From positions 25,362,440 through 25,426,439 of the forward strand of contig CM042089.1 of assembly GCA_023512835.1 (NCBI GenBank): a DNA stretch of 64,000 nt. The letters are read 5' to 3'. The translations under genes and the position numbers were made by a program. Of this stretch, positions 17,566-62,658 are shown in pieces; the stretch's first letter is position 1; each line of letters opens with the position of its first letter. This DNA comes from Taxillus chinensis (taxonomy: Eukaryota; Streptophyta; Magnoliopsida; Santalales; Loranthaceae). A model generated the notes under the pieces. It made no database searches. It was not told where the DNA came from and saw only the letters and a list, made by a program, of their open reading frames with translations.

Positions 17566-17574
17566 GGTCCTAGT

Positions 17575-17586: not shown

Positions 17587-17588
17587 AA

Positions 17589-29518: not shown

Positions 29519-29534
29519 CCATGCTCTGATACCA
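29519..29534 (-). promoter_or_regulatory. Ty3 element I primer binding site
   Basis: TGGTATCAGAGCATGG on the minus strand begins three bases after the 5' LTR. The first 12 bases match the initiator tRNA-Met 3' end. Confidence 0.88.
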
Positions 29535-29537
29535 TAT

Positions 29538-40498: not shown

Positions 40499-41862
40499 TT
40501 AATTATAGGTGGAGTGGCGGTAATGATGAAATTCTCTTCCTCCTTCAAGTCCAAAGAAGAATGCGAAAGAGAAGTTTGCGCATGTTTCTTGTGAACAGTA
40601 GCCACTAGAATTCTGTGGATATATTGGTTGGTTAGGTGGATAGTGCATCTGTGTACCACTATCACTCGAGTTATAACTTCTATCAAATTGACCCATTGAT
40701 AACATTTGATCAAGATATCCATAACCAATACCACTACTACTGCCATAAGAATAAGATTCGCTTCCATGGTGAGGATGTCTATCCCAATCATAATAACTAC
40801 TGGTTCTAGGATGATAGTGGTGACGATGATCTCTATCACGATCTCGATGCACTCCACTAGAAGTAGCACCACTACGATTACAAGATCTCTGCAATGGGGG
40901 TGATGACAGTGGTGAGGATGATCAGCCATGTTCTAAATTCATGCGACCCATTTCAACATCAAGTGTATGACCCATGGAAACTAGTTGACCACCCTGTCTT
41001 TGTCACCTCCACAAAACTTCCTCGTATGCATAATCAGTTGAATCACTGCCTTAACTTGAATAGCTAGTTATCTGATCCCAATACCTCCTCTGTGCTTCAA
41101 GTGGATCAAAGTCCTGCTCTAATAATTTTCTTGACCCATGACCTGCATCTTGTGTGGCAATGAAATCATCATTTCCTTTTTGCCATGTTTGATTTTCAAC
41201 TTGGGTTGATTCTAGATAACGACCACCACCACCACGACCATCATTCTCCTCACCTTCATCATAACCAACACCACTGCCACCATATCCATATCCACCACCA
41301 TTAAAACCCTCACCTCCACCTCCACTATCAGTGGATTCATTCCCACTTCCAGAATTTTCCTCTTCAGAATTTCCCACATAAATTCCTTTTCCACAATTTG
41401 CTTGTGAATCCCTAGTCTCTTGTGCTCATCTGCTTGTGTCAATGTCTTCTCTATACTCATCATCCCCACTGAACTCTTGAATACCATCTTATAACCATTG
41501 ATCAGTAGGACTTAGGAATGGTTTTTCAGACTCTCTAATCCATTCATCCAATATGTTTTCATCATTAAATATATGGTTCAAGTCAACTGGACTGTAGTAG
41601 TCATTATCATTATTTTTATTCAAGAGGTTTCTTACTCGAAGGCATAAATTATAATGTACATACACCAGTTGCTCCAACTTTTTCATAACCAGTTGATTTC
41701 GAATTTTGGTATGGATTAAGGCAAATGTGCTCTAATTTTTTTTACATTCCGATGAGGAACATGTCTGACTAAGTACTTTAATTGCAATTTTCTTCAAATT
41801 TGGAGCAGATTCCCCATAATTATACTACTATTCAGCTACAAACATAATTTGTGCACAATATG
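40499..41862 (-). pseudogene. Decayed hAT-family transposase gene, C-terminal part
   Basis: The minus strand shows the hAT C-terminal dimerisation region: AIKVLSQTCSSSECKKN, a stop, STFALIHTKIRNQL, then KKLEQLVYVHYNLCLRVRNLL and NPVDLNHIFNDENILDEWI-like sequence. The conserved Trp of the NWSTFA motif has become a TAG stop. A long Gly/Ser/Asp-rich tail follows (41377-41051) and a His/Arg/Tyr-rich tail (40894-40499), in several frames. Copia element II is inserted at 41862, and 35 bases of the same gene reappear at 63966-64000; the rest lies outside the window. Confidence 0.7.
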
Positions 41863-43170
41863 TGTTGGTCCCGGAGAGCCTAAAGGGGGGGGGGGTGAAT
41901 AGGCTCTTTGAAAATTCTTTCTCTCTCTTAATGGCTTAGACACTCACTCTGGTTAAACGGATAAAATCAGTGCGGAAGATTAACCAGGTAGTGGAAGTAT
42001 GTTGCTTTATTATCTGAAGATAATTACAACAAAGCAAAACAGCGTTTTAGCTGATTACAACACAACACTCTGTTATAGTTACACACATTTGGCAGTGAAT
42101 CTTTGTGTTTGGCTCTTTACAAGATATACGCTTATGAGTGTATAAGTACAAGTAAGCACCCGCATTCTTATTTACATTGCTTCAGGCATATATATAGACA
42201 TCCTAGAAATCTATTTTGGAACTGCATTTTCCGAGCAGTGTGGAGCATTGAAGTTCTTCATCGGAAAATGCTGAAGCTTTAACTGTTGCGGATGTGGAAC
42301 TCGAAATATTGGAAGCATAAGTTGTAATGAATTCTTTGCTTGATTCCAATTGCATTTGAGACTGCGTCCACATCTCCGTGTGTTCCACGTGTCAGACAAT
42401 TTAGGTATTCAATGAGTTTGTCTTACATCGGGACATATCGAGCTGCTAGCATTAATTACGGCTTGAAGAGATGAAGCAGCGTCTTCTTGGTCCGTTGCAA
42501 GGTTCCTTACTCCGCATGAACGAAGCTCGGATCCTTACTCCGTATCAGTGATTGCTTACTCCGTATGAATGAAGTCCTGGAATCCTTATTCCGTGTCAGC
42601 GTTTCCTTACTCCACATGAGTAGTGGTTCGGAGAGCTTACTCCACATCAGTGCTTCCTTGCTCCGCATGAGTAATGGTTCGGATTCCTTATTCCGCATTT
42701 GATGTCCTTACTGCGCAACAGTTGCCCTTACTCCGCTTGAATGACAGACTCGGATTTCTTCGTCCGTGTCTTCTTTTCCTTAGTCCGGTTGGAGTGACCA
42801 CTTCGATTCTTTCTCTCTCACAAGTCTCTTTTACTCCGTGCAAGATGTAGACTCAGGAACTTACTCCACATTAATTGACATAATCTAGTTGAGTGTTAGA
42901 CGTGGGTTCCTAGTCGTTTTGTCAAGTGTTTAATCAGCACGAAGGGTCTTTACTCCGGATGATGACTTGGTTATGTACCAAGTGAATTGAGGACACTCAT
43001 GATGATCCGGATCAGGATTATGTATCCTGTCCTTAGCTTTGTCCTCACATGAGTAGGTCCGGATTTAGAGTTAACTCATCTGCACATACTTAATGGTAAA
43101 CATGAAACATCTCGAGTCAAATTACATAGGGTTTGTTCCGCATTATCCAAATTCTCGGTTTGATCTTACA
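41863..43170 (-). repeat. Copia II 3' LTR
   Basis: 1308 bp, close to the 5' LTR at 62659-63960. On the minus strand an array of TGCGGAGTAAGG-type repeats (42505-42790) precedes a TATA-like CTATATATATGCC at 42187-42199. The G run in GGGGGGGGGGTGAATAGG differs in length between the two LTRs. Confidence 0.93.
42505..42790 (-). repeat. Tandem CCTTACTCCGCATGA-type repeats in the copia II LTR
   Basis: About nine imperfect units of roughly 25-35 bp, each with CCTTACTCCG(C/T)AT, lie upstream of the LTR TATA-like box. The same array is at 63296-63550 in the other LTR. A U3 enhancer array is the likely reading. Confidence 0.8.
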
Positions 43171-43180
43171 GTCTCCCCCA
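43171..43180 (-). promoter_or_regulatory. Copia II polypurine tract
   Basis: TGGGGGAGAC on the minus strand, directly next to the 3' LTR. Similar G-rich purine tracts also occur at 47231-47240 and 47279-47290. Confidence 0.75.
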
Positions 43181-43310
43181 ATATGGATATGCCAAACCCT
43201 TTGTAATCTGATCCGGTAAGGCAGCAAGAAATAACACAGAGGTAAGGATTAAAGAGAACAGTTCCACTCAGTTACAGCAGGAATACATTAAGCCTTAGTA
43301 CAAATATAAA

Positions 43311-46049
43311 TTATGGTACATACGGCTTACTATATTTGAAGATCATCCTTGCTGCATGCTCTCGTAGTGCCATTGTTTGCTTTTTAGAGAACTCGATGAT
43401 ATTTTTCCAGTCATCATCGAAGGAGATAACAGATTTCAAGAAGTAGCAGACAAAGGCTCCACAACTGTTTCCATCGGGTTGCTGGGGCACATTCTTCTTG
43501 TTCCGGATCGTCCCTATGAGTACTTCATCCTGACCAAGAGGCGGTAGATTCAAGTCTTCGTAGAGAGAACTCTGTCTGATTGCATCTGACAAGGTTCGAA
43601 TGAGATTCCTCATCTGATTCTTTCTAATCAGGCGGTCAACAACTTGATGAGAATCCAGAAGCAAGATTTTTTTCTCTTTGATCAGGAAAACAGTCAGCAT
43701 GAAATGTGGGGAGTCGACCCGGAAGGGAATGAAAACGATGGACAGAGAGGTCCATGGTCGGCTATTCTCTACTGTACCATTGATGTAGGATAGAATAACA
43801 TCCATAGCAGAAAACTGGTTTTCAACCCAGCAAGGAAGAACATCAAAATCAAGGCCTTCCTCAAGTAAAGAGGGGAATAGCCTCAACTCTATCTTTACCG
43901 CCAGAGCATAGTTGTCGATGTCGTCAGTTGAAAATTGTCCCTCTTCAGACAATATGGTCCGGATGTCTTGAGGTTTGAAGGGGGACGAGGCAGACACACA
44001 TCGGCGCTCGGCAGTGGAGAAGGCATAGGCCTTGGCTACAGCAAGAATGCTCCCATCAGCATCATCCGGATGCAATTCCGCGTATGATGGGAGGAAGGAG
44101 ATGGTACCAGATGGAACAGCAGGAGTGGGAGAGCTGGTCTGGCCAGTGGAGAAACGGCTGCGTTTAGGCACTGGAAGGCCCGGAGGAAGAGCAGGTGCAG
44201 ACCATTTGCGAGAGACAACGCCAGTAGTGGAAAGAGGGGAAGGATCAGATGATTTCTCCCCCGGTTTGCAAATCGGCGAGAGTAGGAGGGACTGGCCACG
44301 ACCTGCGTTAAGTCCGCAATGGAGGTGGACAAGTCAGAGAAAGACGCGGCAAGCCGCTCTAGCTTCTGATCCATGGAGAGAGAGGTAGAGGAGAAGGCAA
44401 AAAGAAGCTCGGCACCCATGGCCCGGACATGGTCGGAAAGAGCCTGGGTCTGAAGACGACTGTCCTCAGCAAGGCGATCGAGTTGGGCGAAGAAAGCAGC
44501 CTCAGATAAAATAGTGGCAAAAGAGGCGCGCCCAAGACCAGAGGCGGGAGCTTTCGAGGACTCGCCCGCATGAAGAGGGGCAGGTGTGGGCAGGGTAGAG
44601 TCGGCGGCAGCAGGAGAGGGCGGTGGTTGTACATCAGCAGCAGGAGGAGGGGCGGCAGATCCACTTTGACCAGAGAGGTCAATGGTAGGGATATCCGCAG
44701 GATAAGAGGGACTAGCCTCAGCAGGGACAGGTGTCTGTGCGTCATGGGCAAGCCCGAAAGAGGCAGTAGCAGGAGGTGTAGCCTTTAGGAGCGACGGCAT
44801 TACAAAGCCGTGATAGCAGTTTCAAATAAGCATTTCCTCCGGGGTCTGGGTGTGTTGAGCATAAAACACCCAGAGGGTAGGTTCTGGGATGTCAATAGTA
44901 ATGGCGAGGCTGAAGCGCAGCCAACAATCATTCAGTATGCCGGTGGAGAGATGGTCGAGATAGTCCTAGAGGGCCGGAGAGTGAGCGGGAGAGGCTTCCA
45001 CAGGAGAAGATGGAAGGTCCGGAAGAACAGCAGCAACAGCCGCTGTGACCGGAGAGATAGGTGCGGGAGCATCAGCAGCAGCATCAGGAGCAGCAGCAGC
45101 AACAACAACAGGAAGAGAGGCAGGGTCATCAGCAAGAGAGGCGGATGTGGTGACCTCATGGAAGGGCGGCTGAGAGGGCCCTGCAGCAGTAGACGGGTCA
45201 GCCCGAACGTTGTGCAACGAACTGCGGGAGCGTGCCGGAGCGGCAATAGACCGGATGCGAGAGTGAACTGACCGGAGAGCAGAACTAACTTCGTGGCCCG
45301 AGCTGGCAACAGGTTCACCAATAGAACTCACTTGCTGTTCTGAAGCGACAGCAAGGGTACGGGAGACTGGAGGGCGGCGAACGGTGAGGGTCCCGTCGGC
45401 AGTAAGATGGCGGAAATAATAGGACGCCGGGAAGGGAATCACCAGTTCACCCTGGAAGTGCGCTGGGTGAAGATGCCGGAAGATTTGGGACAGAATCCGT
45501 CCAAAAGACGAGTTCCGTTTCCCATTCCGCAACACCTGGAAGAGAAAGTTGTCCCAGTCAAGTGGTAGTGACTCAAAAACCGCATACATCGCCAGCAGGA
45601 GATCGTATGGAACCGAGTCGAGAGCCGTGAAGTGAGCTAGAAGACACCGGCTGAGTATGGTGGCCATACAGCGGTGAGGACCATGGAAAGACTTCATTTT
45701 GTACTCCTTTACCTTATTAGGACACCCCATGGAAGCAGCCATGGCAGCAGTGTTTGGTCGGATGTCATCACCGACAGGAAGGTTGAAAACATCCCGGATC
45801 ACCTGAGGTGTGATCTTGGTAGTTTACCCTCGAACCACAGAAAAGGATAAACTCCTCAGTGGAGGTGGAGTGATGATGGAAGGCCAGGACGTCCGACACT
45901 AGAAGATCGGCCGAGGCAGAAACAAGCGCGAAAAGGTTGCTATGCTCGAGTAGCTGGCAAACCTCGTGGAGCCATGCTGGAGGATCAGAGATTCCGGACC
46001 AATCGACAAGATGGCCAGGAACAACACCATAGAGAGCTTGGGATGCCAT
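43311..46049 (-). pseudogene. Extra ORF of copia II with C-terminal Ulp1-like (C48) cysteine protease
   Basis: One long reading frame of about 913 codons begins at ATG 46049 (MASQALYGVVPGHLVDWSG) and ends at 43311. It is broken by a frameshift near 45825, a TAG at 44968-44966, a TGA near 44830 and a one-base shift in a G run near 44262. The N-terminal domain (VIRDVFNLPVG, YDLLLAMYAVFESLPLDWDNF) resembles the uncharacterised plant transposon-protein domains of some retroelement ORFs. An Ala/Pro/Ser-rich middle and a helical stretch (AQLDRLAEDSRLQTQALSDH, DQKLERLAASFSDL) follow. The last 286 residues (44171-43311) contain SPHFMLTVFLIKEKKILLLDS and VPQQPDGNSCGAFVCYFL, aligning with the Ulp1/SENP catalytic core: His156, Asp173, Gln231, Cys237. 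Ulp1 enzymes cleave SUMO from proteins; the substrate here is unknown. The ORF lies wholly between RNase H and the polypurine tract, so it belongs to the retrotransposon unless a further insertion was missed. Confidence 0.8.
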
Positions 46050-47861
46050 TGAGAGTGAAAGAGTAAGGGAGAAGGAGAGAAGAGCTTTGCCGGAATAGGT
46101 GCGGCGAGGGTTTAGGGTTTTGAGAGTTGGTAGTGATAACCTCGGCCGATGCCGATAGTGCGGTATAAATAGGATCCTTTCCGTGGAAGCGAGTGGGTCT
46201 CGAGTTTAAGCAAAATGAACAGTGAGCCACTCGACTTCCTTATGTCATTAGAAGTGATGGATTAGTGCCGTCGAATAGACTTATGACGTGGCGGCTGTGC
46301 TAACCATTCAAAAATGATAGCTGTAGGCATACTTCCGGATTTTTGAAAAGATAAGTATCGGGCTCGATGCGTGCATTAAATGAACCATCATTATCCCTCC
46401 TCAAAAATAAGCGATGTAAGATAATTACTTGGTTTATTGCGAATTGAGAATTCCAAGAGTCAGGAGGAAATAAACCGACTTTCATCCGGAGCAGGATAAT
46501 CCATATAAAGATCATCCGGATGAGACTAACTAACTGTATCAGTATAACAGTGTTAAAAAGAGATGATTCCTTTGCGGTCTTGATGTCGAGGGAGTATGAA
46601 GTACCACAACACCTCAGAAATCCGAGACATCTGACAGGATAGAGCAATGAAATGCAAAGAGAATCTGAACCTGTGACTTAACAAATAGATGCTTTGAAGA
46701 GCAAGTCTCGTCAGGTTCGGGTTAGTCCGGATAAACAATATAAGAGTATAACACACAATCCGTACTAAGAAGAAACAGAACTTATGCATAAGAAGTTAAG
46801 TGCTAGACACATACATAAGAGGTGAAAGCCATCATACTGAAATCAATGTATGTGTGGGATAATTAACACATAAATCCAATAAGTCAACATAGCCAATCCT
46901 TCATACTGAAAATGACAGCAAAGATCAATTTGATTTATATGACTTCATCCATCAGAGAATGTATGAGTGAAAATGGAAGGAAGAGCACATGATGTATGAT
47001 GTTACAACCGACTGTCATGCCTAAAATGCTAGGAAGAGAAAGATAACAGCCAAGCAATCCGCAATTCCGATTCAACAGTGCAAATCCAATCAGCTTTATG
47101 AGTGAGAGTTATAGGGCGGAACATCCGAGACATATCAGAGAGGCATTACTTAATAATAAGCATTCTCTCGCCCTGTAGTCATGCCTTTTGCTGAAACAGG
47201 GGGCCTTACTTAAGATTCAATGAAATATTCTCTCCCCCTGAGATCAGCGAATCATTTTGATGCGTTCTTCTCGAGGATGACTCCCCCTCAGATAGACAGC
47301 CAGGAGAGAGGTCATGAAATATGAATCTGGGAGTATTACTAGATAATAGTGAGAGCAATTTCTCTCCCGTGGACTTTTAGAGCCTATTAAGACGTTTCCT
47401 GTTTTATGATGAAACGAGAGAAACTGCTGCCTATCCTTGATTTACTCCACTCAAGCGGTGATCGCGAGACAGTGAATTTCCACTTTCGACCGAGCTATCC
47501 CAAATCATTCCTCAACCATGCATCTTAGATATTTCAGTCAGTCATGAAATCATAAGACATGTGATGGAAGATGGAGTTGAATTCATGACATCAGAATAGG
47601 ATTTGTGTCAAAGAAATTTAATCATGTTTGCTTGATTCACTGTCAGTCCGGATTAGCAAGCATCCTCCCAAAATGAACTTAGTGAGAAATATCAGAACAT
47701 TTACACGACTAAAGTAAGATAGTTAAACATGAAGTTCAGTATCTATCACTAACCATGAAGTACAACGATGCATGTTCTGAAAACAACTACTGATGGATAA
47801 CAGGTGAGAAGCTATGCAGAAAAGTCAAACATACCTAATTTAAGAAGAAGTTCAGAAAATC
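46050..47861 (-). other. Copia II non-coding stretch between RNase H and the extra ORF
   Basis: About 1.8 kb without a supported gene. Two G-rich purine tracts (CAGGGGGAGA, GAGGGGGAG on the minus strand) at 47231-47240 and 47279-47290 resemble the polypurine tract at the 3' LTR. Short words such as CATCCGGA recur. Confidence 0.5.
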
Positions 47862-48365
47862 TTACATCAGGTAGGGACTTTGTAAGTATATCCCTGATTG
47901 ATCTTCGATAGCAACATGTTCCAGGGATATGTGCTTTTTAAGAACATGATCGCGAATGAAATGATGCCTGACCTCAATATGTTTTGTCTTTGGATACATG
48001 ACGGGATTATTGCTGATAGCAATAGCACTGGTATTGTCACAGTAGAGTGTAACAGATGTCATGTTGAAGCCGTAGTCAGTAAGTTGACTTTGTATCCAGA
48101 GAAGCTATGCACAGCAACTCCCAACAGCTATATATTCCGCTTCAGCAATAGAGGTTGATACGGAATTCTGCTTCTTACTGAACCAAGAGATCAATCTGTT
48201 TCCAAGGAATTGGCATGTACCACTGGTGCTTTTCCTGTCTATGCGACACCTGGCAAAGTCAGCATCAGAACATCCGGATAAGGCGAAGTTGGACTCTTTT
48301 GGGTACCAGAGTCCCAAATTCATCGTCCCTTTGAGATACCTTAATATCCGTTTTACATGAAGCAT
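47862..48365 (-). pseudogene. Copia II RNase H
   Basis: Blocks: RILRYLKGTMNLGLWY, GCSDADFARCRIDRKSTSGT, IAEAEYIAVGSCCA, then in a shifted frame LYCDNTSAIAISNNPV and KHIEVRHHFIRDHV. A frameshift near 48062-48105 separates the halves. Confidence 0.88.
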
Positions 48366-48532
48366 ATGTGACTCTTTGGGATTCGCCTAATATCTTGCGC
48401 AGAAGCAAGTTGCAAACATTATGTCCGGGTGACTTGCTGTAAGATACAGCAAGGATCCAATCATCCCTCTATACTCAATCATATTCACTGATTTGCCATC
48501 AACATCTGGGTCTAACTTGGCACTGACTGGCA

Positions 48533-49485
48533 TTAGAGTTTTGACAGGAGATGAACCTTCATACCAAACTTCTTGATTAAGTCACGAGTGTACTTAGCTT
48601 GGTTGATGAAGATCCCTTCCTTTAGTTGTTTGACCTTGATCCTAAGGAAGTAAGACAGTTCTCCCATCATACTCATCTCAAACTTGCCAGTCATCAACTT
48701 GGCAAACTCATCAGAAAGTTTCGGATTAGTTGATCCAAAAATGATATCATCCACGTAGATCTGTACAATCAGAGTATGTGTCTTCTCTTTCCGTAAGAAT
48801 AGCGTGGTGTCAATCTTCCCTTTTTGGAAGTTGTGAGCGAGTAAGAATTCCGAAAGTATGTCGTACCAGGCTCTTGGAGCTTGCTTCAATCCATACAAGG
48901 CTTTCCTTAGTTTGTAGACCAGATGTCCAGCCTTTGGTTCAATGAATCCTAGAGGTTGTTCAACATATACCTCCTCTTGAAGATCTCCATTTAGAAATGA
49001 CTCTTGACATCCATTTGATAAACTTTGAAGTTTTCGTATGAAGCGTATGCCAAGAACATTTTGATTGTCTCAAGTCGGGCTACTGGAGCAAAAGTTTCGT
49101 CATAGTCTATTCCTTCTTCTTGACGATAACCCTTGGCTACCAGTCGGGCTTTGTTCTGGATTATGATTCCGTCCGTATCAAGTTTGTTCCGGAACACCCA
49201 TTTAACTCCAATGACTTGTTGAGACTTTGGCCTTGGTACAAGAGTCCACATATCATTCCTTTTGAACTGATTTAACTCTTCTTGCATGTCGTCTATCCAA
49301 TTTGAATCTTGAAGAGCTTCTTCCACCACTTTTGGCTCTATCTGCGACAAAAAGCAAGAGTAGAGGCACATGTTGGAGGTGGTTGCTCTTGTTCTAACAC
49401 CAACAGAAGGATCACCAATCACTTGTTCTTGAGGGTGTGCTTTGAGTCTACCTATAGTTTTGTGCAAGTGGTGGTGAATACTCAA
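48533..49485 (-). pseudogene. Copia II reverse transcriptase
   Basis: Blocks: [47 protein letters not shown], then after a frameshift near 48991 [19 protein letters not shown] and the catalytic [11 protein letters not shown]. The order and sequence fit SIRE-type copia polymerases. Confidence 0.9.
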
Positions 49486-50134
49486 TGATTTGAAGCTCTG
49501 TCAGATTAGGTGGTCCTTGGTCGTCCACTGATTGAGCTTCTTCCGGGCCAGCGTTATTCAAATTAACAGGTTCTGGAGTATTTTGAGGTTCTCCATTACT
49601 GTTCATTTCTGTATCAACTGGTCCGGATGGACTGGAAAGTACTCCGGTATTTTGAATATCCGAAGGAATATATCTGGAGTTATGTGGAAGTCCCAAGTCC
49701 GATTTATCCGTAGCATCATCTGCATCATTTCTTCGTTCTTCATTGGTGCCACATGGTTGGTTAGTAGAAGTGACAGGAACATTCATAAACTTTGAGTAGT
49801 CAATGTTGTCGTCTTGATCCTGCACATTAGAACTTGAAGAACCAACTTTCGACCATTCCGTGTTAGCTTCATCAAAAGTCACATGGATAGATTCTTCAAC
49901 TTTGAAAAGTTTTGTATTGAAAATCTGATAAGCCTTGCTATGTAATGAGTATCCAACAAATATCCCATCATCAGATTTAGGTTCAAATTTATTCCGGGAT
50001 TCTTTTCCATTGTTCAGTAAGTAGCAAGTACACCCAAAAGTTTTGAAGTGTGAAATAGAAGGCTTTCTGCCCTTCCACATCTCATAAGGTGTTTTCATGG
50101 TAAATTTATTTATAAGAGTTCTGTTCTGAACATA
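49448..50134 (-). pseudogene. Copia II integrase, C-terminal part
   Basis: The frame begins at the Ty3 insertion point and reads PYEMWKGRKPSISHFKTFGC, DGIFVGYSLHSKAYQIFN, the usual region after the copia integrase core. An Asp/Asn/Pro-rich linker to the reverse transcriptase follows. It continues the frame broken at 59316-59320 once the inserted element and one ACATA copy are removed. Confidence 0.88.
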
Positions 50135-50700
50135 TGTAATGACCCGTGTGTAACCCGTGTGTTAAGGAGTTAACCACAAACACCTTGGATGTTAGTACAC
50201 AAGTTTAAGGTAAGAGATGAGCCCAAGAGGGGACTTTTGAGAGGTGCATGTGTCAAGCGATAGCGTACATTTATGCCCTAGGAAGATGCTTATGCGTTTA
50301 CAGGCGGTTTTAAGTCGTTTTGGCTGATCTTGGAGCTCACTTTTGACCTAGTAGATGGCCTCAAACAATTGGCGTGCAAGAACAAAAGTTTCTTAGAATG
50401 AGGTCCTCTATCTACCACAGAAATTTCAGAGCATTTGGAGCTGAACGTGAATTCACCCATTTCACGTGCAAGCATATTTTTGCTCCTCAGGCCTCTACAA
50501 GATGCAAGGAGACTTGTGGTGAAGTTTGAGTGCATTTGGAGCTGCACACCAATTGGGGAATTGGCGTGCAAATTGACGTGCAAGCATATTTTTGCATGGT
50601 TCCCTTGGTTTTGCCATTCTAAGGAACTTTCTCCAAAGGACCATGTTGAAATTTTGAGTATTTTGGCCTATATGGGTGCGGAAAGGTGGTAACTTGTGTG

Positions 50701-50796
50701 ATCAAAACTACGTCGTTTTGATCCTGGCATTCACTTAATCAAAACTACGTCGTTTTGATCCTGGGATTCACTTAATCAAAACTACGTCGTTTTGAT
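50701..50796 (+). promoter_or_regulatory. Triplicated ACGT-centred near-palindrome upstream of the LTR TATA box
   Basis: Three 22-bp units with arms ATCAAAAC and GTTTTGAT around a central ACGT, spaced 37 bp apart, sit just upstream of CTATATAAG. The ACGT core is typical of plant bZIP sites. Element I has only two units. Confidence 0.7.
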
Positions 50797-50807
50797 GTTG
50801 TGTTGTC

Positions 50808-50816
50808 TATATAAGA
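50808..50816 (+). promoter_or_regulatory. LTR TATA box
   Basis: CTATATAAG about 12 bp after the last near-palindrome. Transcription would start shortly downstream, near the TTAGGGTTTGTTGC segment. Copies lie at 58158-58166 and, on the minus strand, near 23356 and in the 29538-31326 LTR. Confidence 0.75.
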
Positions 50817-51382
50817 AGGAGGAGTCCCTCTGTTTTAGGTTTAGGGTTTGTTGCTTCACCAGCCGTCGCAGAGAGAGAGAGAGGGAAGAGGAGAGCTCCT
50901 GGTTGCCGCCGGGCGTCTTGCGTGGGTGGTCGGTGCTTCGTGGGTGGACGGCGTTCGGCTTGGGATCGGACCGTTCTTTGTGTTGTTGCGTTTTCCTTGA
51001 GGTAGGGGTTCTGTTCTTCCTAAATCCTCCTCCTGTCCTAGGGTCCTAGGGTAGAATATTATATTATTTATATGTAAATTCATATAGGTGTGACCTCCTA
51101 TATGAATGTTGGCCTTGATGGCATGTTGGTGTGATTCTGTGGATTACATGCTATGTGTTCGATGAAATGCCTGTGTGAATATAGCATTATGTATATGCCC
51201 ATTACATGTTTGGTAATATGCCTGTGTGGCTGGATTTGTGGTTTAGTGTATGTATGTATCTTGTGTGTTTGCTCTATTTTCCTGAATGGTTGGGTTTGTG
51301 CGCTTGTGAATGGGTGCACACCAATGTGTTTGGTGGTATGCTTGAGTGACCATGTGTGTTGTGTGCTTGATCGTGGTATCTG

Positions 51383-51484
51383 GCCTGAAGAGGCGGTTAA
51401 AGAACTTTGCCTGAGAGGCGGTTAAATCACTTGGCCTGAAGAGGCGGTTAAATAACTTGGCCTGAAGAGGCGGTTAAATCACTT
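51383..51484 (+). repeat. Four 26-bp tandem repeats (GCCTGAAGAGGCGGTTAAA)
   Basis: Four units of TGGCCTGAAGAGGCGGTTAA with AATCACT/GAACTT/TAACT spacers are present in every LTR of this family (also 22688-22790, 30022-30124, 58731-58833). One unit in each is shortened (CCTGAGAGGCGG). Confidence 0.9.
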
Positions 51485-51970
51485 GTGTTTTGTGTGGTGG
51501 ATAATTGTGACGACCGATGTGGTTTGTTATTGTTTGTTGAGATTGTTGTAACACGTCACCGCACCCGTGCACATGCATGTAGCCGCTAGGAGCATGGGAA
51601 GGGTTGGGGAGACTTGATCCCTACCGAGCCGTGGTTGCTCACCCCTCCTACGGTGTTTGCTTGTTTTCCAGGGACTTACAGGCGTTAGGTGGATACACCA
51701 AGGTGGAAGACCTTATCCATTTTATTCTTCCATTTATGTTGTTTTCTTTTATGGGAACCGATGTAACCCCAAGTGGGGATGGGATTGGAAAGAATTCTGT
51801 TGTAATAAACTGGTTTGGAATATTTTTATGAATATTACATTCTTGAATGTGTTGTGGATGTTTGAAATGTAAAATTCTTGGTTTGTATCCTAACCCCTTT
51901 GCCCTCCGTGTGGGTAAAAGGGGAGTCACGTGCCGGTTTCCTCGGGTTGGAAATCCGGGGCGTGACAATA

Positions 51971-51985
51971 TGGTATCGAGCATGG
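51971..51985 (+). promoter_or_regulatory. Ty3 element II primer binding site
   Basis: TGGTATCGAGCATGG, three bases after the 5' LTR. It lacks one A of the TGGTATCAGAGC seen in element I. Confidence 0.85.
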
Positions 51986-52381
51986 TCTAGTTGGCCTAGG
52001 GTAGTGGGCGGACTTGGTTATCTTGAGTCCTTTGGAGGAGCCTGGGGGGACATGCCTGATCAACATGGTCCTCTTTGAGCCTCCAAGGTGTACTTAGGGT
52101 AGTCCGGTCTTGTGATAGGATTTGCATGCATTGGCATTAGGGCACTAGTTGCATTTCTTGTGAATGTATGCTAAAGCGTGGATAAGATCACATGATTAAG
52201 TGAAATGTGCAACTCGATTTGTTTGGCAATGTGTCTTGGATCGTGAACTGTGAAATGTGATTGGTGCAATGTATGTGTGTAATGTCATGTGTTAGTGAAA
52301 TTGATAATGGGGTAGAGGTAGTCAACTTATTAGTAGTCAAACGCGTCCTGACATTTGTGCATCTTACTTCATGTAGTAAGA

Positions 52382-53662
52382 ATGCCACCGAGGAGAGTGA
52401 CACGTGCGTCCGGGGCGATGGGCGATGAGTCATCTGCCCATGAGGGTCCGGGTGCGGGACCATCCGTTGGAGGGCATGCGTTGCTACCGGCACGGCTACA
52501 AGAAGGCATCCAGTGGAGGTACGAGAGCTACGGGAGGGACTCCGGCAAGACGTTCGGGAGGAGGTGCGCCGTGAGATGGCAGACACAGCGGTGGTGCCAC
52601 CACCACCACCACCAGGTAGGAGAGGCGCCTCGTGAGCGTGAGAGTTCGCTGGGTGGTGTACCGACCCGTGCGAGAGGATGACGTGGTGACACGGTTCCGA
52701 AAGGAACAACCTCCGCGATTTAAGGGGGGGGAAGATCCTGTGGTAGGCGAGCAGTGGTTGAGGCAGATTGAGCATGTGTTCTCCTTTCTCCTGCCCCGGG
52801 AGGAGGATAAAGTGCGGCCCGGCAATTCGGCGGCTGGAGGGGGACGCTTTGGAGTGGTGGACGAGTGTTGCGGGGAGCCGTGCGGTGCAACTCATGTTTT
52901 GGGAGGAGTTCTTGCAACTCTTCCAAGATGAGTTCTTCCCGGAATCGGTGAGATGGCGAGAAGAGGGAAGAATTTGGCAGCTTGAAGCAGGGATCCAAGA
53001 CGGTACCCGAGTATGAGCGGGAGTTCCGGAGATTGAGTAGGTTTGCTCTCGAGAGCGTGGTAAGGGAGGACCTGAAGGCCCACAAGTTCACCTTGGGTCT
53101 CAGGCCAGCCCTTAGGGAGAGGGTGGCGATTCTACGCTTGAGGACCTATGCCGAGGCCGTGGAGACGGCCCGAATAGGCGAGAGAGAGCTGGATGATGGG
53201 AGGCAGGCCCATCGGGGGCGCCGATTGCGGTGTGGGCCCGATCGAGATGCAGGGTCCAAGAGGCTCAAGACGGAGGAGAGGGATAGCGATTCTTATCGCA
53301 ATCGGGGTCGGACATCCGTGAACCCTGGGAGGTTCACCTTTGGCGGCGGAAGACAGGGTGGTCCAGTGGGAGTCTACCGAGCGGATGCCCTTCCTGTGGA
53401 GAGCAGGGTCACTTCAAAGGGGAGTGCCCCAAGAAGGCTGGCGATGCAACAACCGTGGGCGAGAGGGTCATTTGCGCCGGGTTTGCGGGAGTGGCAACAG
53501 GGGAACGGGGGCGCGGCATCCGGCGTGAGGAGTGATGCTAGCTTCCGTGCACCAGCCGAGAGACCCGGCTCGTCGGTGGCAGCCCGACCAGGCAGGATCC
53601 GGTCGGACCCGACCCCGGGGGAGGCCGGAACGGCAGCAGACCGAGGCCGGAGGCAACCTTAG
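52382..53662 (+). pseudogene. Ty3 element II gag
   Basis: ATG at 52382 (MPPRRVTRASG). Blocks across several frames: VRELREGLRQDVREEVRREM, FRKEQPPRFKGGEDPVVGEQW, IEHVFSFLLPREEDKVRP, LEGDALEWWTS and KTVPEYEREFRRLSRFALES, a typical Ty3 capsid. The zinc knuckle region is degraded by shifts (compare CHCCGEQGHF in element I). Confidence 0.82.
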
Positions 53663-53679
53663 CGGGAAACGTCCGGTGA

Positions 53680-54219
53680 GTGAGCCGACAAGTGGCACGG
53701 GCCAAGGAAGGGTGTTTGCGGCTGGAGGCGACATACCAGGAGGAGGCTGAGCTACCACCCCCACCAGTTGAGGGTGGAGCAGGACCATCGGTGGTTAGAG
53801 GTACCCTCTTGATCTCCCGTACCTTAGCTTCTGTTCTTTTCGATACGGGTGCATCGTGTTCGTTTGTTCCGAGCCTGTGATAGATAGCTTGGGGTTAGCT
53901 TGTGTGGAGGCCGCGAGGCCCCTAGTTGTGGAGTCTCCTGGTGGGAGGCATGATTGAGGTACGACGAGTGTGTCGTGACTGTGTGTTAACCATAGGAGAG
54001 GTGGAGCTGCGTTTTGACTTGCATGTGATGCCTTTGAGGGCGTTTGACCTGATCTTGGGTATGGATTGGCTTATGGCTTTCCAGGCCAAGATAGATTGTT
54101 ATCGGCGGCGTGTGACCTTCGTGACACCTGCAGGGACCTCTTGCACCCTGCAGGGGGAGTGGGATTGTGAGGCGAGTCGGGCCGGGCCGGTGTTGGACCG
54201 GTGGGGTGCCATTACCCAC
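53680..54219 (+). pseudogene. Ty3 element II protease region
   Basis: Shows LASVLFDTGASCSFV, then after a shift near 53880 VCRDCVLTIGEVELRFDLHV and FDLILGMDWLMAFQAK. Matches element I 27172-27960. Confidence 0.85.
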
Positions 54220-54239
54220 AGGTTAGCAGCCCGACCTTT

Positions 54240-55515
54240 CTTTGAGGAGGGTAAGGTGGAAAAGAGGGTGTGGCCCGTTGTTGTGGACCAATTTCGGGAT
54301 GTTTTTCCTGAGCGGTTGAGGAGTTTGCCACCTAAGAGGAGTGTGGAGTTCACCATTGAGTTGGTACCGGGGACGGGTCCGATTTCCCAAGTAGCGTATC
54401 GTATGGGGCCAGTGAGTTGAGGGAGCTTCAGAGGCAAATCGAGGAGTTGGTGGGCCAGGGGTATATCGGACCAAGTACCTCACCTTGGGGTGCTCCGGTG
54501 CTCTTTGCTAAGAAGGCCGATGGCACGCTTCGTCTCTGCATCGACTACAGGAAGTCGAATTCGGTGGATCGTGAAGAACAAGTACCCGTTGCCTCGGATA
54601 GATGACCTGTTTGACCAATTGAGTGGGGCCCAGTGGTTTTCCAAGATAGATTTACGGTCGGGGTATCACCAGCTCGGGGTTAGGGAGGAGGACATCCCTA
54701 AGACGGCTTTCCGGTGCGGTATGGGCATTATGAGTGGGTAGTGATGCCTTTCGGGCTCACTAATGCGCCAGCGGTGTTCATGCATTTGATGAACCAAGTC
54801 TTTGCCCCATACTTAGACTCGTTCGTGGTGGTGTTTATCGACGATATCTTGGTGTATTCCAAGACCGAGAAGGAACATGTGGAGCACTTGGCAACAGTGT
54901 TGCAAACCTTGAGGGACCAGCATTGTTTGCTAAGTTTAGCAAGTGTGAGTTTTTGGCCCCAGGAGGTTCACTTTCTTGGCCATGTGGTGTCAGTGAGGGA
55001 GTTAGGGTGGACCCAGCCAAGATTGAGGCCGTGGCATCGTGGGCAAGGCCAACCAACGTTTTTGAGATCCGTAGTTTTCTTGGCTTGGCGGGGTACTATC
55101 GTCGTTTTGTAGAGGGGTTCTCCCGTTTGGCGGCTCCTATGACGGCGTTGACTCGGAAGGGCGTGAAGTTTGATTGGACCGACAAGTGCCCGGCGGGCGT
55201 TTGAGACTCTCAAAACCCGTTTGACCACCGCACCCGTGTTGAGGTTGCCTAGGGAGGATATTCCATATGAGGTGTATTGTGATGCGTCCAGGGTTGGTTT
55301 GGGGTGTGTGCTTATGCAGGAGCACAGTGTGGTAGCTTATGGGTCGAGGCAATGAAGCCTCATGAGCGAATTATCCTACTCATGACCTTGAGTTAGCGGT
55401 CGTCATCTTCGCCCTGAAGAGTTGGCAGCACTACCTCTTGGGAGAAAAGTTTGTGGTGTTCTCGGATCACAAGAGCCTTCAATACATCTTTACTCGAAGG
55501 ACTTGAATTTGAGGC
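54240..55515 (+). pseudogene. Ty3 element II reverse transcriptase and RNase H
   Basis: Blocks: [94 protein letters not shown] and the [16 protein letters not shown] region. Single-base shifts occur near 54415, 54720, 54950, 55195 and 55352. Confidence 0.9.
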
Positions 55516-55919
55516 AAAGGAGATGGGTGGAGTATTTGCAGACCTTTGATTTTACTCTTGCCTATACCCCGGGCAAGGGTAATGTTGTGGGCGATGCATT
55601 GAGCGGAAAAGGGAAAGCTAAGGTGGCCGTGAGAGAGTGGAAGGCGATGGAGCGGTTGGCAATGTTGCGGTGCGGCCCGTTGTTCGTGATGGTGGGACAG
55701 TCCTGAGTCCTTTGGTGGTGGTGCCTGAGTTGTACCAGCGCGTCCGGGAGGAACAGTGGGTGACATTGAGTGTGAGGTTCTCCGTGCCCGTATTGAGGCC
55801 GGGGAGCTATCTGGAGACCGGACGAGAGGGTCCTGAGCATGAGTTGTCATTTCAGGGGCGGTTGGTCGTGGCTTCTTCCCTCGGGGATGAGGTGATGAGG
55901 GAGTTTCACCCGGTCTAGA

Positions 55920-56743
55920 GTTGCTTGTGCATCCAGGGGGTACGAAGATGTATCATGCGCTTCGAGCACATTTTTGGTGGCCTGGGATGAAACGCGATGT
56001 GGCCGCCTTTGTTTCGCGGTGCCTCACGTGTCAACGGTGAAGGCCGAGCATCGGCGGCCGGCGGGCATGTTACGGCCCTTGCCCATAGCGGAGTGGAAGT
56101 GGGACCATATAGCGATGGATTTTGTGACCGGTCTTCCACCCACCACCTGGGAGGAAGGATATGATTTGGGTAATTGTGGATCGACTCACAAAGTCGGCCC
56201 ATTTCCTGGCTGTTCGCGAGCGGGACTCCATTGGGACCTTGAGTCAGGCGTACATGAACGAGATTGTGAGAGCTGCATGGCGTACCCTCATCGGTTGTCT
56301 CGGACCGGGATTCGAGGTTCACTTCCCGTTTTCGGGCAGGTTTGCCAGGAGGCTATGGGGACCAAGCTTCATCCGAGTACAGCCTTTCACCCTGAGACCG
56401 ACGGTCGACCGAGCGGACGAATCGGACCATGGAGGACATGTTGAGGGCTTGTGTGCTAGATTTCGGGGGTTCGTGGGCAACTCACCTTCCTTTGGTGGAG
56501 TTTGCCTACAACAACGATTATCAGGCATCCATTGGGATGACTCCTTTTGAGGCGTTGTATGGACGGCCGTGTCGATCCCCTTTGTGTTGGACCGAGGTGG
56601 GGGAGACGGCTCTCTTGGGACCGCAGTTGGTTCAAGAGGCTACGGAGAAGGTCAAGTTGATTCGTCGGCGTTTGTTGTCGGCTCGAGTCGCGAGAAATCT
56701 TATGCGGATCAGCGACGGCGACCTTTGGAGTTTCTGTTGGTGA
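55920..56743 (+). pseudogene. Ty3 element II integrase
   Basis: Blocks: RCLTCQ-like zinc-binding region, [55 protein letters not shown] and FEALYGRPCRSPLCWTEVGE, in three frames. Confidence 0.85.
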
Positions 56744-56893
56744 TCATGTGTTCCTTCGTGTCTCTCCACATCGTGGACATCGACGGTTTGGGCGGGGTTC
56801 CAAGCTATCTCCGCGGTTTATTGGTCCTTTTGAGATTCGGATCGTGTAGGGCCCGTAGCCTACCGGTTAGCGTTACCACCGAGGCCGAGTAGA

Positions 56894-57171
56894 GTGCACA
56901 ACGTGTTTCACGTGTCCCGGTTGCGGAAGTATCACCCTGACCCCACTCATGTGATTGATTGGGGGACGTTGGACATCGAGGATGACATGTCCGTCATTGA
57001 GGCCCCTATTCGTATCCTCGATCGGCGAGAGAAGCTTTTGCGTGGTCGTGCTTATTCCTTTGGTTCGCGTCCGTGGCAGCACCGTGGTATTGAGGAGGAG
57101 ACATGGGAACGTGAGTCCATGATGCGTGAGCGACCTGGACTTGTTCGAGGACGAACAATCTTAAGCGTGGG
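56894..57171 (+). pseudogene. Ty3 element II chromodomain tail
   Basis: MHNVFHVSRLRKYHPDP, PIRILDRREKLLRGR and HRGIEEETWERE match element I 24327-24608. The final MRERYPDLF is altered by an indel near 57130. Confidence 0.83.
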
Positions 57172-57467
57172 AGGTGGTGTTGGCCAAGGGATGGATAGTG
57201 ATGTTTTCTTGTGATGTGTTTTCTTGTATTCGTTGATGTATTTGTATTGTCTTTTAAAGACATGTGTTCTTGTTTGTGATGTGCCTTGAGATGTGTATTC
57301 GTGACATGTGGTTATTGTGGTTATGGATTCCGGTGGTACTTGTTATGTGCCGTTGTCTTTGTGTGTGGTGTATGACCCCTTTGGGTGTTGTAGCTCGCCG
57401 TGTGGCAAATGGGTAGCTTGTGTTTGTTTTCCTCGTATGTCATTTCTTTTCGAGGACGAAAAGTCTT

Positions 57468-57481
57468 AAGGGGGGAGAGGA
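57468..57481 (+). promoter_or_regulatory. Ty3 element II polypurine tract
   Basis: AAGGGGGGAGAGGA immediately before the 3' LTR. Confidence 0.88.
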
Positions 57482-59315
57482 TGTAATGACCCGTGTGTAA
57501 CCCGTGTGTTAAGGAGTTAACCACAAACACCTTGGATGTTGGTACACAAGTTTAAGGTAAGAGATGAGCCCAAGAGGGGACTTTTGAGAGGTGCATGTGT
57601 CAAGCGATAGCGTACATTTATGCCCTAGGAAGATGCTTTATGCGTTCTGAGGCGGTTTTAAGGTTGTTTTGGCTGATCTTGGAGCTCACTTTTGACCTAG
57701 TAGATGGCCTCAAACAATTGGCGTGCAAGAACAAAAAGTTTCTTAGAATGAGGTCCTCTATCTACCACAGAAATTTCAGAGCATTTGGAGCTGAACGTGA
57801 ATTCACCCATTTCACGTGCAAGCATATTTTTGCTCCTCAGGCCTCTACAAGATGCAAGGAGACTTGTGGTGAAGTTTGAGTGCATTTGGAGCTGCACACC
57901 AATTGGGGAATTGGCGTGCAAATTGACGTGCAGGCATATTTTTGCATGGTTCCCTTGGTTTTGCCATTCTAAGGAACTTTCTCCAAAGGACCATGTTGAA
58001 ATTCTGAGTATTTTGGCCTATATGGGTGCGGAAAGGTGGTAACTTGTGTGATCAAAACTACGTCGTTTTGATCCTGGCATTCACTTAATCAAAACTACGT
58101 CGTTTTGATCCTGGGATTCACTTAATCAAAACTACGTCGTTTTGATGTTGTGTTGTCTATATAAGAAGGAGGAGTCCCTCTGTTTTAGGTTTAGGGTTTG
58201 TTGCTTCACCAGCCGTCGCAGAGAGAGAGAGAGAGGGAAGGAGAGCTCCTGGTTCTTTGCCGGGCGTCTTGCGTGGGTGGTCGGTGCTTCGTGGGTGGAC
58301 GGCGTTCGGCTTGGGATCGGACCGTTCTTTGTGTTGTTGCGTTTTCCTTGAGGTAGGGGTTCGTTCTTCCTAAATCCTCCTCTGTCCTAGGGTCCTAGGG
58401 TAGAATATTATATTATTTATATGTAAATTCATATAGGTGTGACCTCCTATATGAATGTTGGCCTTAATGGCATGTTGGTGTGATTCTGTGGATTACATGC
58501 TATGTGTTCGATGAAATGCCTGTGTGAATATAGCATTATGTATATGCCCATTACATGTTTGGTAATATGCCTGTGTGGCTGGATTTGTGGTTTAGTGTAT
58601 GTATGTATCTTTGTGTGTTTGCTCTATTTTCTGAATGGTTGGGTTTGTGCGCTTGTGAATGGGTGCACACCAATGTGTTTGGTGGTATGCTTGAGTGACC
58701 ATGTGTGTTGTGTGCTTAATTGTGGTATCCGGCCTGAAGAGGCGGTTAAAGAACTTTGCCTGAGAGGCGGTTAAATCACTTGGCCTGAAGAGGCGGTTAA
58801 ATAACTTGGCCTGAAGAGGCGGTTAAATCACTTGTGTTTTGTGTGGTGGATAATTGTGACGACCGATGTGGTTTGTTATTGTTTGTTGAGATTGTTGTAA
58901 CACGTCACCGCCCCGTGCACATGCATGTAGCCGCTAGGAGCATGGGAAGGGTTGGGGAGACTTGATCCCTAACGAGCCGTGGTTGCTCACCCCTCCTACC
59001 GGTGTTTGCTTGTTTTCCAGGGACTTACAGGCGTTAGGTGGATACACCAAGGTGGAAGACCTTATCCATTTTATTCTTCCATTTATGTTGTTTTCTTTTA
59101 TGGGAACCGATGTAACCCAAGTGGGGATGGGATTGGAAAGAATTCTGTTGTAATAAACTGGTTTGGAATATTTTTATGAATATTACATTCTTGAATGTGT
59201 TGTGGATGTTTGAAATGTAAAATTCTTGGTTTGTATCCTAACCCCTTTGCCCTCCGTGTGGGTAAAAGGGGAGTCACGTGCCGGTTTCCTCGGGTTGGAA
59301 ATCCGGGGCGTGACA
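57482..59315 (+). repeat. Ty3 element II 3' LTR
   Basis: 1834 bp, near-identical to 50135-51967, with all its internal motifs including three near-palindromes (from about 58050). Followed by ACATA. Confidence 0.93.
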
Positions 59316-60291: not shown

Positions 60292-60300
60292 GACAACAAA

Positions 60301-62598: not shown

Positions 62599-62644
62599 GT
62601 TAAGTTTAGAGGGAGTGAGGGATCTCTACGAGCAGGTAGAACTT

Positions 62645-62656
62645 GCTCTGATACCA
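62645..62656 (-). promoter_or_regulatory. Copia II primer binding site
   Basis: TGGTATCAGAGC on the minus strand, two bases inside the 5' LTR, matches initiator tRNA-Met. Confidence 0.9.
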
Positions 62657-62658
62657 CT

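What the first reader, a model, noticed from the sequence alone, without database searches (positions are those of the whole stretch)
43311..46049. A copia retrotransposon carrying a Ulp1/SENP-like SUMO-protease domain
Seen: a long frame between RNase H and the polypurine tract of a SIRE-like copia element ends in a domain with SPHFMLTVFLIKEKKILLLDS and VPQQPDGNSCGAFVCYFL, matching the His-Asp-Gln-Cys core of Ulp1. Known: Ulp1-like domains are frequent in plant DNA transposons (MULEs, CACTA) and SIRE elements may have an env-like ORF in this position. Inference: an LTR retrotransposon has acquired a deSUMOylating enzyme, perhaps to act on gag, integrase or host silencing factors. I know of no description of this combination, but could not search.
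Basis: partly seen in the sequence, partly recalled or inferred. Interest (0 to 1): 0.88.

Follow-up and report, generated by a model that had tools for sequence, protein, structure and literature searches.

The report
Copia retrotransposon with SUMO-protease-like domain
A jumping element of the Sirevirus type in a plant genome carries, in the place where such elements may have an envelope-like gene, a decayed gene that ends in a protease domain of the family that removes the small tag protein SUMO; the combination was not found described, but only this one broken copy could be examined.

Summary
The finding lies in a complete Sirevirus-type copia element (minus strand, 41863-63960; 12.9 kb without a nested 9.2-kb LTR element), with LTRs, CATAT target-site duplications, tRNA-Met primer site and a polypurine tract with its bordering inverted repeat. 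Between pol and that tract, on the same strand, lies the env-position ORF 46049-43311. Its last stretch matches Pfam Peptidase_C48 (E 6e-11); His, Asp, Gln and Cys align with yeast Ulp1. It is not one frame: two frameshifts and two stops make five pieces; the protease lies in the last, of 340 codons. No flanking terminal inverted repeats were found. The ORF has 4 lesions, near the 3 that LTR divergence predicts for an ORF intact at insertion, and no denser than in gag-pol. That fits a gene intact 1-2 million years ago; it does not prove selection. Ten literature searches gave no description of the combination, but they saw open papers only, and a supplement that could list such cases (Neumann 2019, file 4) was unreadable. 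Ulp1 domains are known in MULE, CACTA, Ginger, Crypton and non-LTR elements. No other copy could be fetched: conservation, dN/dS and activity are untested.

The parts
41863..63960 (-). Whole Sirevirus-type Ty1/copia element, including a nested LTR element (12,912 bp without the nested one and one of its TSD copies)
   Evidence: LTR pair 96.8% identical over 1303 columns; borders, TSD and PBS
62659..63960 (-). 5' LTR (starts TGTTGG)
41863..43170 (-). 3' LTR (ends CCAACA); C-rich stretch near its end as in the Sirevirus integrase signal; CGGA and GGAGTAAG repeats; TATA-like motif near position 973 of the LTR
   Evidence: Sirevirus features from PMC2829016
63961..63965 (.). Target-site duplication CATAT, 5' side
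41858..41862 (.). Target-site duplication CATAT, 3' side
62645..62658 (-). 5'LTR/PBS junction AGTGG-TATCAGAGC (tRNA-Met primer site)
   Evidence: equals the G variant of the Sirevirus junction described in PMC2829016
60301..62597 (-). gag, broken by three frameshifts (copia gag domain, CCHC zinc knuckle)
   Evidence: Retrotran_gag_2 E 8.6e-15, zf-CCHC E 3.1e-6; frames
59316..60300 (-). pol, first part: beta-barrel domain, pre-integrase, integrase core
   Evidence: Pol_BBD 3.3e-14, gag_pre-integrs 4.1e-16, rve 3e-12
50135..59315 (+). Nested LTR element inserted in the integrase region, TSD ACATA (not part of the finding); judged Ty3/gypsy from a second copy of the family with an RT_RNaseH match (that this family marks gypsy is recalled)
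47812..50129 (-). pol, second part: integrase SH3-like, reverse transcriptase, RNase H; broken by frameshifts and stops
   Evidence: SH3_retrovirus 3.8e-25, RVT_2 2.1e-26 and 4.8e-27; RNase H by recalled motifs only, no RNase H Pfam match; frames
47232..47288 (-). Two exact copies of the Sirevirus PPT octamer AGGGGGAG (47281-47288, 47232-47239), upstream of the env-position ORF
46108..46172 (-). Candidate internal promoter elements: CTATTTATA (46164-46172) and AAACCCTAA (46112-46120), 60-120 bp upstream of the ATG
   Evidence: CTATTTATA is not above chance (24 of 100 shuffles reach its 2 matches); AAACCCTAA is (6 matches, 0 of 100 shuffles), but 5 of the 6 lie elsewhere, mostly in the other LTR family
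45768..46049 (-). env-position ORF, piece A: ATG at 46049, open to 45768; frame lost near 45830
   Evidence: no Pfam match
44966..45823 (-). env-position ORF, piece B; ends at TAG 44966-44968
   Evidence: no Pfam match (its first 155 aa)
44822..44965 (-). env-position ORF, piece C; ends at TGA 44822-44824
   Evidence: no Pfam match
44250..44821 (-). env-position ORF, piece D (Pro/Ala-rich); frame lost near 44250, mechanically open to 44036
43311..44333 (-). env-position ORF, piece E: 340 open codons ending in TAA, with the Peptidase_C48 match in residues 187-333
43335..43775 (-). Peptidase_C48 (Ulp1 catalytic) match; His 43704-43706, Asp 43653-43655, Gln 43479-43481, Cys 43461-43463
43181..43207 (-). 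Left arm of the inverted repeat that borders the polypurine tract; right arm at about 43121-43152 inside the 3' LTR (14 of 15 matches in its ungapped part; the longer arm read by eye with a 5-nt gap)
   Evidence: PMC2829016 section 8
43173..43180 (-). Terminal polypurine tract TGGGGGAG, starting 10 bp upstream of the 3' LTR

Best explanation
What it is (shown): a Sirevirus-type Ty1/copia retrotransposon whose extra gene between pol and the 3' LTR (the env-like or eORF-3'F position) ends in a Ulp1-type cysteine-protease domain with the four residues of the active site. This copy is dead: gag, pol and the extra gene are broken and another LTR element sits in pol. How it most likely worked (inferred): the intact parent made a protein with a Pro/Ala-rich part and a C-terminal protease that cuts SUMO or a related ubiquitin-like tag from host or element proteins, helping the element in trans, most plausibly by easing SUMO-linked transcriptional repression or by protecting Gag/integrase complexes. 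Rough odds: structure 0.95; intact and made by the parent element 0.7; active ubiquitin-like-protein protease 0.5; anti-silencing role 0.25.
For: Element anatomy and its match with published Sirevirus features. C48 match above the curated cut-off and aligned His-Asp-Gln-Cys. ORF on the pol strand, ending 103 bp before the PPT-bordering inverted repeat, the position where 74% of SIRE elements have an extra ORF (PMC6317226 passages). Lesions: 4 in 2739 bp of the ORF against 11 in about 5600 bp of gag-pol, binomial p 0.79; expected from LTR divergence if intact at insertion: 0.86 stops and 2.1 indels in the ORF (2 and 2 seen), 2.5 and 4.3 in gag-pol (3 and 8 seen). Context for mechanism: Ulp1-carrying VANC genes (KIU) of Vandal MULEs (review PMC13317346 passages); yeast Ty1 transcription is restrained through Ulp1 at the nuclear pore (PMC8585004 abstract).
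Against: Only one copy seen; a recent one-off capture would also look intact at insertion. The His is followed by Phe where Ulp1 has Trp, so SUMO specificity is doubtful. The first 67 of 217 profile positions are unmatched. Single-sequence structure models failed (pLDDT 36.8 and 40.2); Foldseek put SENP proteases on top of the first but with 0 of 438 matches at E 0.001 or better, and the second gave 0 of 74. Codon-usage preference for the stated frame is weak. In yeast Ulp1 at the pore helps repression, the opposite sign to a simple anti-silencing model. The role of the Ulp1 domain in KIU genes is itself unknown.
Confidence: 0.5

Rival explanations
1. Passenger: the domain was captured once, from a host gene or a DNA transposon, into one or a few copies of the family and does nothing for the element. 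Element RNA simply carried it along.
For: Gene and domain capture by plant LTR elements is documented (PMC7264820, part 1 of 3; PMC13317346 passages). The N-terminal and middle part of the ORF (46200-43801) has G+C 0.50-0.60 in all eight 300-bp steps, against 0.36-0.43 in the linker and 0.41 in the second part of pol, as an acquired block might; the protease end itself (0.40-0.44) does not stand out. SIRE extra ORFs fall into 19 groups with little similarity, which the authors read as independent acquisition or fast evolution (PMC6317226 passages).
Against: It fills the usual extra-ORF position, in sense, at the end of an ORF that was probably open at insertion; a passenger carried for long would have decayed more than gag-pol, and it has not.
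Confidence: 0.27
2. The domain is a protease that acts on the element's own proteins (a processing enzyme, as adenovirus protease is for its virus) or an inert binding module in an env-like or movement-like protein, not a deSUMOylase.
For: His-Phe in place of His-Trp and an unrecognised first third of the domain leave substrate choice open; adenain belongs to the same clan (recalled). Non-LTR elements NeSL and Utopia-1_TSP also carry a Ulp1-like protease in their own protein (PMC4640811 passages).
Against: All four catalytic residues are kept; copia elements already have an aspartic protease for maturation (recalled).
Confidence: 0.15
3. A separate DNA transposon (MULE or CACTA with a Ulp1 ORF) inserted into this one copy.
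For: Such transposons are known in plants (PMC8978399 passages; PMC13317346 passages).
Against: Of 8 inverted-repeat pairs of 12 nt or more in 43100-47900, none has one arm in 43171-43310 and the other in 46050-47811, which speaks against CACTA and TIR-MULEs. The ORF sits in the extra-ORF slot, in sense, ending 103 bp before the intact PPT inverted repeat. An old fusion with such a transposon's ORF, before the family spread, is not excluded.
Confidence: 0.07
4. Chance resemblance in a noncoding stretch.
For: The ORF is broken and codon-usage support is weak.
Against: C48 at E 6.2e-11 with the four active-site residues in place; 340 open codons reached in 0 of 1000 simulations.
Confidence: 0.01

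Closest known systems
Sirevirus (SIRE, Maximus) Ty1/copia elements with an env-like gene or eORF-3'F
   Same: Size, LTR length, 5'LTR/PBS junction, C-rich LTR end, PPT-bordering inverted repeat, CCHC gag, extra ORF in sense between pol and 3' LTR
   Different: The extra ORF ends in a Ulp1-type protease domain; the word Ulp1 has 0 occurrences in PMC2829016 (listing), in the main text of PMC6317226 and in PMC7264820 (listing)
KIU / Ulp1-carrying VANC genes of Vandal (non-TIR MULE) DNA transposons; Ulp1 MULEs of melon, rice, grapevine
   Same: A plant transposable element with a Ulp1 catalytic domain in an ORF other than the transposase (PMC13317346 passages)
   Different: DNA transposons; here a retrotransposon. 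Sequence relation not testable here
CACTA elements with Peptidase_C48 in ORF2 (Chenopodium, Vitis, Citrus)
   Same: Same Pfam family in an accessory part of a plant element (PMC8978399 passages)
   Different: Class II elements with TIRs; no flanking inverted repeats here
NeSL and Utopia non-LTR retrotransposons of nematodes
   Same: Retrotransposons that carry a Ulp1-like cysteine protease (PMC4640811 passages)
   Different: Domain lies at the N-terminus of the RT-bearing protein; non-LTR, animals
Ginger1 and Crypton DNA transposons
   Same: Ulp1/C48 domain attached to or beside the mobility enzyme (PMC2836005 passages; PMC3212892 passages)
   Different: DNA transposons, the Ulp1-bearing ones from Hydra and oomycetes among the passages seen

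Membership tests
Sirevirus (Ty1/copia) | Copia-type gag, integrase and RT, on one strand between LTRs | tested here: met
   Retrotran_gag_2, Pol_BBD, gag_pre-integrs, rve, SH3_retrovirus, RVT_2; order gag-integrase-RT
Sirevirus (Ty1/copia) | 5'LTR/PBS junction CA-ATTGG (or AGTGG)-TATCAGAGC | tested here: met
   CA-AGTGG-TATCAGAGC at 62660-62645 against PMC2829016
Sirevirus (Ty1/copia) | Terminal PPT AGGGGGAG exactly 10 bp upstream of the 3' LTR, attachment site AT/TG | tested here: inconclusive
   Position met; sequence TGGGGGAG-AC/TG differs by one base in the octamer and one in the attachment site
Sirevirus (Ty1/copia) | Multiple PPT copies in the linker, mostly after the env gene | tested here: inconclusive
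   Two exact octamers, both before the ORF; 4 in the window on both strands, 9 of 100 shuffles reach that
Sirevirus (Ty1/copia) | Inverted repeat with left arm bordering the PPT and right arm in the 3' LTR | tested here: met
   15-nt arms with one mismatch, extending by eye to about 27 nt up to the PPT; also occurs in almost half of classic copia elements
Sirevirus (Ty1/copia) | Palindromic CGG-CCG repeat boxes in the LTR | tested here: not met
   No CGG-N0-4-CCG in the 3' LTR; non-palindromic CGGA and GGAGTAAG repeats instead; two such boxes near the ORF start, 46148 and 45913. Not universal: Tnd-1 lacks the signature and six env-containing Sireviruses lack the boxes
Sirevirus (Ty1/copia) | Clustering with SIRE in RT/RH/INT trees | not tested
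   No reference sequences could be fetched
Peptidase family C48 (Ulp1) | Profile match above the curated cut-off | tested here: met
   43 bits against 20.7
Peptidase family C48 (Ulp1) | Catalytic His-Asp-Cys with oxyanion Gln in order | tested here: met
Peptidase family C48 (Ulp1) | Trp after the catalytic His (Ulp1/SENP type) | tested here: not met
   Phe in its place; how far this Trp defines the family is recalled, not tested
Peptidase family C48 (Ulp1) | Ulp1 fold | tested here: inconclusive
   Models at pLDDT 36.8 and 40.2; Foldseek not significant
Peptidase family C48 (Ulp1) | Cleavage of SUMO or other ubiquitin-like proteins | not testable with these tools
   Needs a biochemical assay
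Ulp1-bearing DNA transposon (MULE, CACTA) | Terminal inverted repeats around the ORF | tested here: not met
   does not apply to non-TIR MULEs. Duplications around the ORF were not searched apart

The most novel reading that the evidence does not exclude
A lineage of Sirevirus retrotransposons keeps a third gene under selection that makes an active ubiquitin-like-protein protease, perhaps expressed from its own internal promoter (CTATTTATA and AAACCCTAA just upstream of the ATG), and uses it to loosen SUMO-dependent host silencing; this would answer what at least some plant env-like genes do.
Probability: 0.17. Interest if true: 0.85.

Novelty: new variant of a known kind. Interest (0 to 1): 0.56.

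Why it matters
The function of the env-position genes of plant LTR retrotransposons is an open question (PMC2829016 section 20; PMC6317226 passages; PMC7264820 part 1 of 3). An enzyme domain with a known catalytic mechanism in that slot would turn the question into a biochemical test. It would also add LTR retrotransposons to the groups of mobile elements that have taken up Ulp1-type proteases (MULE, CACTA, Ginger, Crypton, NeSL/Utopia), which suggests that control of ubiquitin-like tags helps mobile elements in general.

Tried and rejected
Separate TIR-type DNA transposon: found unlikely for lack of flanking inverted repeats. Second C48 copy in the window: none seen; 748 stop-to-stop pieces of 40 aa or more searched with pieces E and B by blastp, only self matches below E 0.01. 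Relatives in IMG/VR: none with the 286-aa piece, nor with two RT pieces. GTDB genome contigs: none with the 286-aa piece or one RT piece. Plasmids: none with the 340-aa piece. These collections hold viruses, prokaryotes and plasmids, so this says nothing about plants. PHROGs (pieces E and B) and NCBIfam (pieces E, B and D): nothing relevant. Pfam for ORF pieces A, B, C and D: 0 families up to E 5 or 10, though HMMER's filters drop most matches above about 0.1. Structure prediction without an alignment: unusable, Foldseek on those models not significant. Codon-usage score trained on gag-pol: the stated frame scored best of the three forward frames for pieces B, C, D and E, but narrowly for the C48 part alone (0.114 against 0.099), and reverse frames came close or above (C), so it counts little; piece A was mis-framed in that script and is not counted.

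Literature searches for the combination (10 of 10 used; open-licence PMC only), papers listed of papers holding the terms: 7 of 7, 8 of 8 (14), 20 of 51 (15), 20 of 122 (23), 0 of 0 (26), 20 of 71 (27), 4 of 4 (43), 25 of 4,979 (44), 6 of 6 (50), 25 of 1,124 (67). I opened 15 papers, as passages, sections or outline only; the fullest was part 1 of 3 of PMC7264820. No title, abstract start or passage that I saw describes a Ulp1/C48 domain in a plant LTR retrotransposon. Of the 7 papers six were opened for the word Ulp1; PMC5240378, PMC5821449 and PMC10438386 mention Ulp1 only as a gene or gene family name; PMC11363490 was not opened. PMC8127270 was opened for the term C48, which there is a sample label. 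PMC11963269 and PMC11728184 have 0 occurrences of Ulp1 and SUMO. PMC6317226 Additional file 4, which lists domain matches of extra ORFs, could not be read.
Full report
Question. I checked the sequence, the element around it, its relatives as far as the tools reached, and the literature held.

The element. A self-comparison of the window gives an LTR pair at 62659-63955 and 41863-43165, 96.8% identical. Inspection sets the LTRs at 62659-63960 and 41863-43170 on the minus strand, starting TGTTGG (TGTAAG in the 3' copy) and ending CTAACA or CCAACA, flanked by a CATAT duplication on both sides. Directly after the 5' LTR comes AGTGG-TATCAGAGC. The published Sirevirus junction is CA-ATTGG-TATCAGAGC, with G in the second place in six elements (PMC2829016 passages), so the match is exact to that variant. 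The terminal polypurine tract TGGGGGAG starts 10 bp before the 3' LTR, as in Sireviruses, but with one base changed. A 15-nt inverted repeat with one mismatch lies across it; reading the printed stretch by eye, it extends up to the tract itself, as described for Sireviruses (PMC2829016 section 8). Two exact AGGGGGAG octamers lie at 47281-47288 and 47232-47239, before the ORF, whereas most published copies lie after it. Palindromic CGG-CCG boxes were not found in the LTR. The domains found are copia gag, zinc knuckle, Pol_BBD, pre-integrase, integrase core, SH3-like and two RVT_2 pieces. RNase H is called from recalled motifs; Pfam gave no RNase H match for those pieces.

A second LTR element, 50135-59315 on the plus strand with a TSD of ACATA, is inserted in the integrase region. 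Without it the element is 12,912 bp, inside the Sirevirus range of 8.45-14.42 kb given in Table 2 of PMC2829016. I file it as a Sirevirus-type element on these features; no tree was made.

The ORF. Between the pol end (47812) and the polypurine tract there is an ATG at 46049 and a TAA at 43311-43313, on the pol strand. Five pieces carry it: 46049 to about 45830, 45823-44966, 44965-44822, 44821 to about 44250, and 44333-43311, the last two overlapping in different frames. The breaks are two frameshifts and two stops. The last piece has 340 open codons; 0 of 1000 Markov simulations reached that length. Peptidase_C48 matches it at E 9.7e-11, or 6.2e-11 for the part from its first GTG. The match covers profile positions 68-211 of 217. 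Against solved structures the best match is yeast Ulp1 (1EUV) at E 0.19, weak alone, but it places His, Asp, Gln and Cys on the Ulp1 active-site residues (which residues these are in Ulp1 is recalled). Phe follows the His where Ulp1 has Trp. The other pieces match no Pfam family; piece B recalls the layout of other plant env-like ORFs, from memory only.

Was the gene intact in the parent? The LTRs differ by K2P 0.030, or about 1.2 to 2.1 million years at 1.3e-8 or 7e-9 changes per site per year (rates recalled). From that divergence, an ORF intact at insertion should have gathered 0.86 stops and about 2.1 indels; 2 and 2 are seen. For gag-pol 2.5 and 4.3 are expected; 3 and 8 are seen, of which one stop may be the normal gag/pol boundary (lesions counted by me from frames). 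Lesion densities do not differ (4 in 2739 bp, 11 in about 5600 bp, binomial p 0.79). The indel expectation rests on only two LTR indel events, one of them in a run of C. So the extra gene decayed no more than gag-pol, as expected if it was open when the copy was made. This does not show selection: a gene captured shortly before would look the same.

A separate transposon? Eight inverted-repeat pairs of 12-20 nt occur in 43100-47900; none flanks the ORF. The ORF stop is 103 bp from the inverted repeat that borders the polypurine tract. So the ORF most likely belongs to the element, though a non-TIR MULE, the kind that carries KIU genes, would leave no inverted repeats. The N-terminal and middle part of the ORF is rich in G+C (0.50-0.60 in all eight 300-bp steps from 46200 to 43801) against 0.36-0.43 in the linker and 0.41 in the second part of pol, while the protease end (0.40-0.44) is like the rest. 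That may point to a foreign origin of the front part or to its Pro/Ala-rich make-up.

Relatives. None could be fetched. The protein database was switched off, the whole-genome search did not complete (12 attempts), and IMG/VR, GTDB contigs and plasmids, where plant elements are not to be expected, gave nothing. Conservation among copies and dN/dS are therefore untested, and the host plant is not identified. Structure models without an alignment are not usable. With the first, Foldseek listed SENP proteases in eight of its ten best rows, but 0 of 438 matches reached E 0.001; with the second a NEDD8 protease came first at E 0.26, with 0 of 74 at E 0.001. I count this as a hint at most.

Literature. 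Ulp1 domains are described in MULE/Vandal elements (PMC13317346 passages), CACTA (PMC8978399 passages), Ginger1 (PMC2836005 passages), Crypton (PMC3212892 passages) and in the non-LTR retrotransposons NeSL and Utopia (PMC4640811 passages). Of SIRE elements, 74% have an extra ORF in this position, in 19 groups with little similarity, and 21.4% of all extra-ORF proteins match some CDD domain (PMC6317226 passages); the list of those domains is in a supplement I could not read. In ten searches I saw no statement that a plant LTR element carries a Ulp1 domain. These covered open-licence papers only, and of the longer lists I saw only the top rows.

Mechanism. The most likely reading is a trans-acting accessory protein with a C-terminal protease for SUMO or a related tag. 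Two published settings make this sensible: Ulp1-carrying VANC genes act within transposons that escape silencing, though the role of the Ulp1 domain itself is unknown, and yeast Ty1 transcription depends on Ulp1 tethered at the nuclear pore (PMC8585004 abstract). In yeast, that Ulp1 helps repression, so the direction in plants cannot be taken over. Expression may start from an internal promoter, as was suggested for Sirevirus env genes (PMC2829016 section 20): CTATTTATA (46164-46172) and AAACCCTAA (46112-46120) lie just upstream of the ATG, but the first is not above chance and the second also occurs five times elsewhere in the window.

Verdict. The combination is real in this copy, and not described in what I could search; function and conservation are open. 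I rate it a new variant of a known kind, interest 0.56.

Noticed in passing
50135-59315 (+) and 22206-31326: Two copies of one LTR-retrotransposon family in opposite orientation, 94.6% alike over 7.4 kb; the second has an RT_RNaseH match. One of them is nested in the Sirevirus element.
   Followed up: partly
13430-17595 (-): Another copia element with a long open gag-integrase frame (774 aa) and further RT/RNase H-like pieces (the latter by eye).
   Followed up: no
2241-3074 (-): Open piece with a Myb DNA-binding match (E 8.5e-8), probably an exon of a host MYB gene.
   Followed up: no
37061-38828 (-): FG-repeat-like pieces with a weak, sub-threshold Nup98 GLEBS match (E 0.003), perhaps a host nucleoporin gene or relic.
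   Followed up: no
43801-46200: The front and middle of the env-position ORF are markedly richer in G+C than the linker and pol next to it; the protease end is not. Cause unknown.
   Followed up: partly
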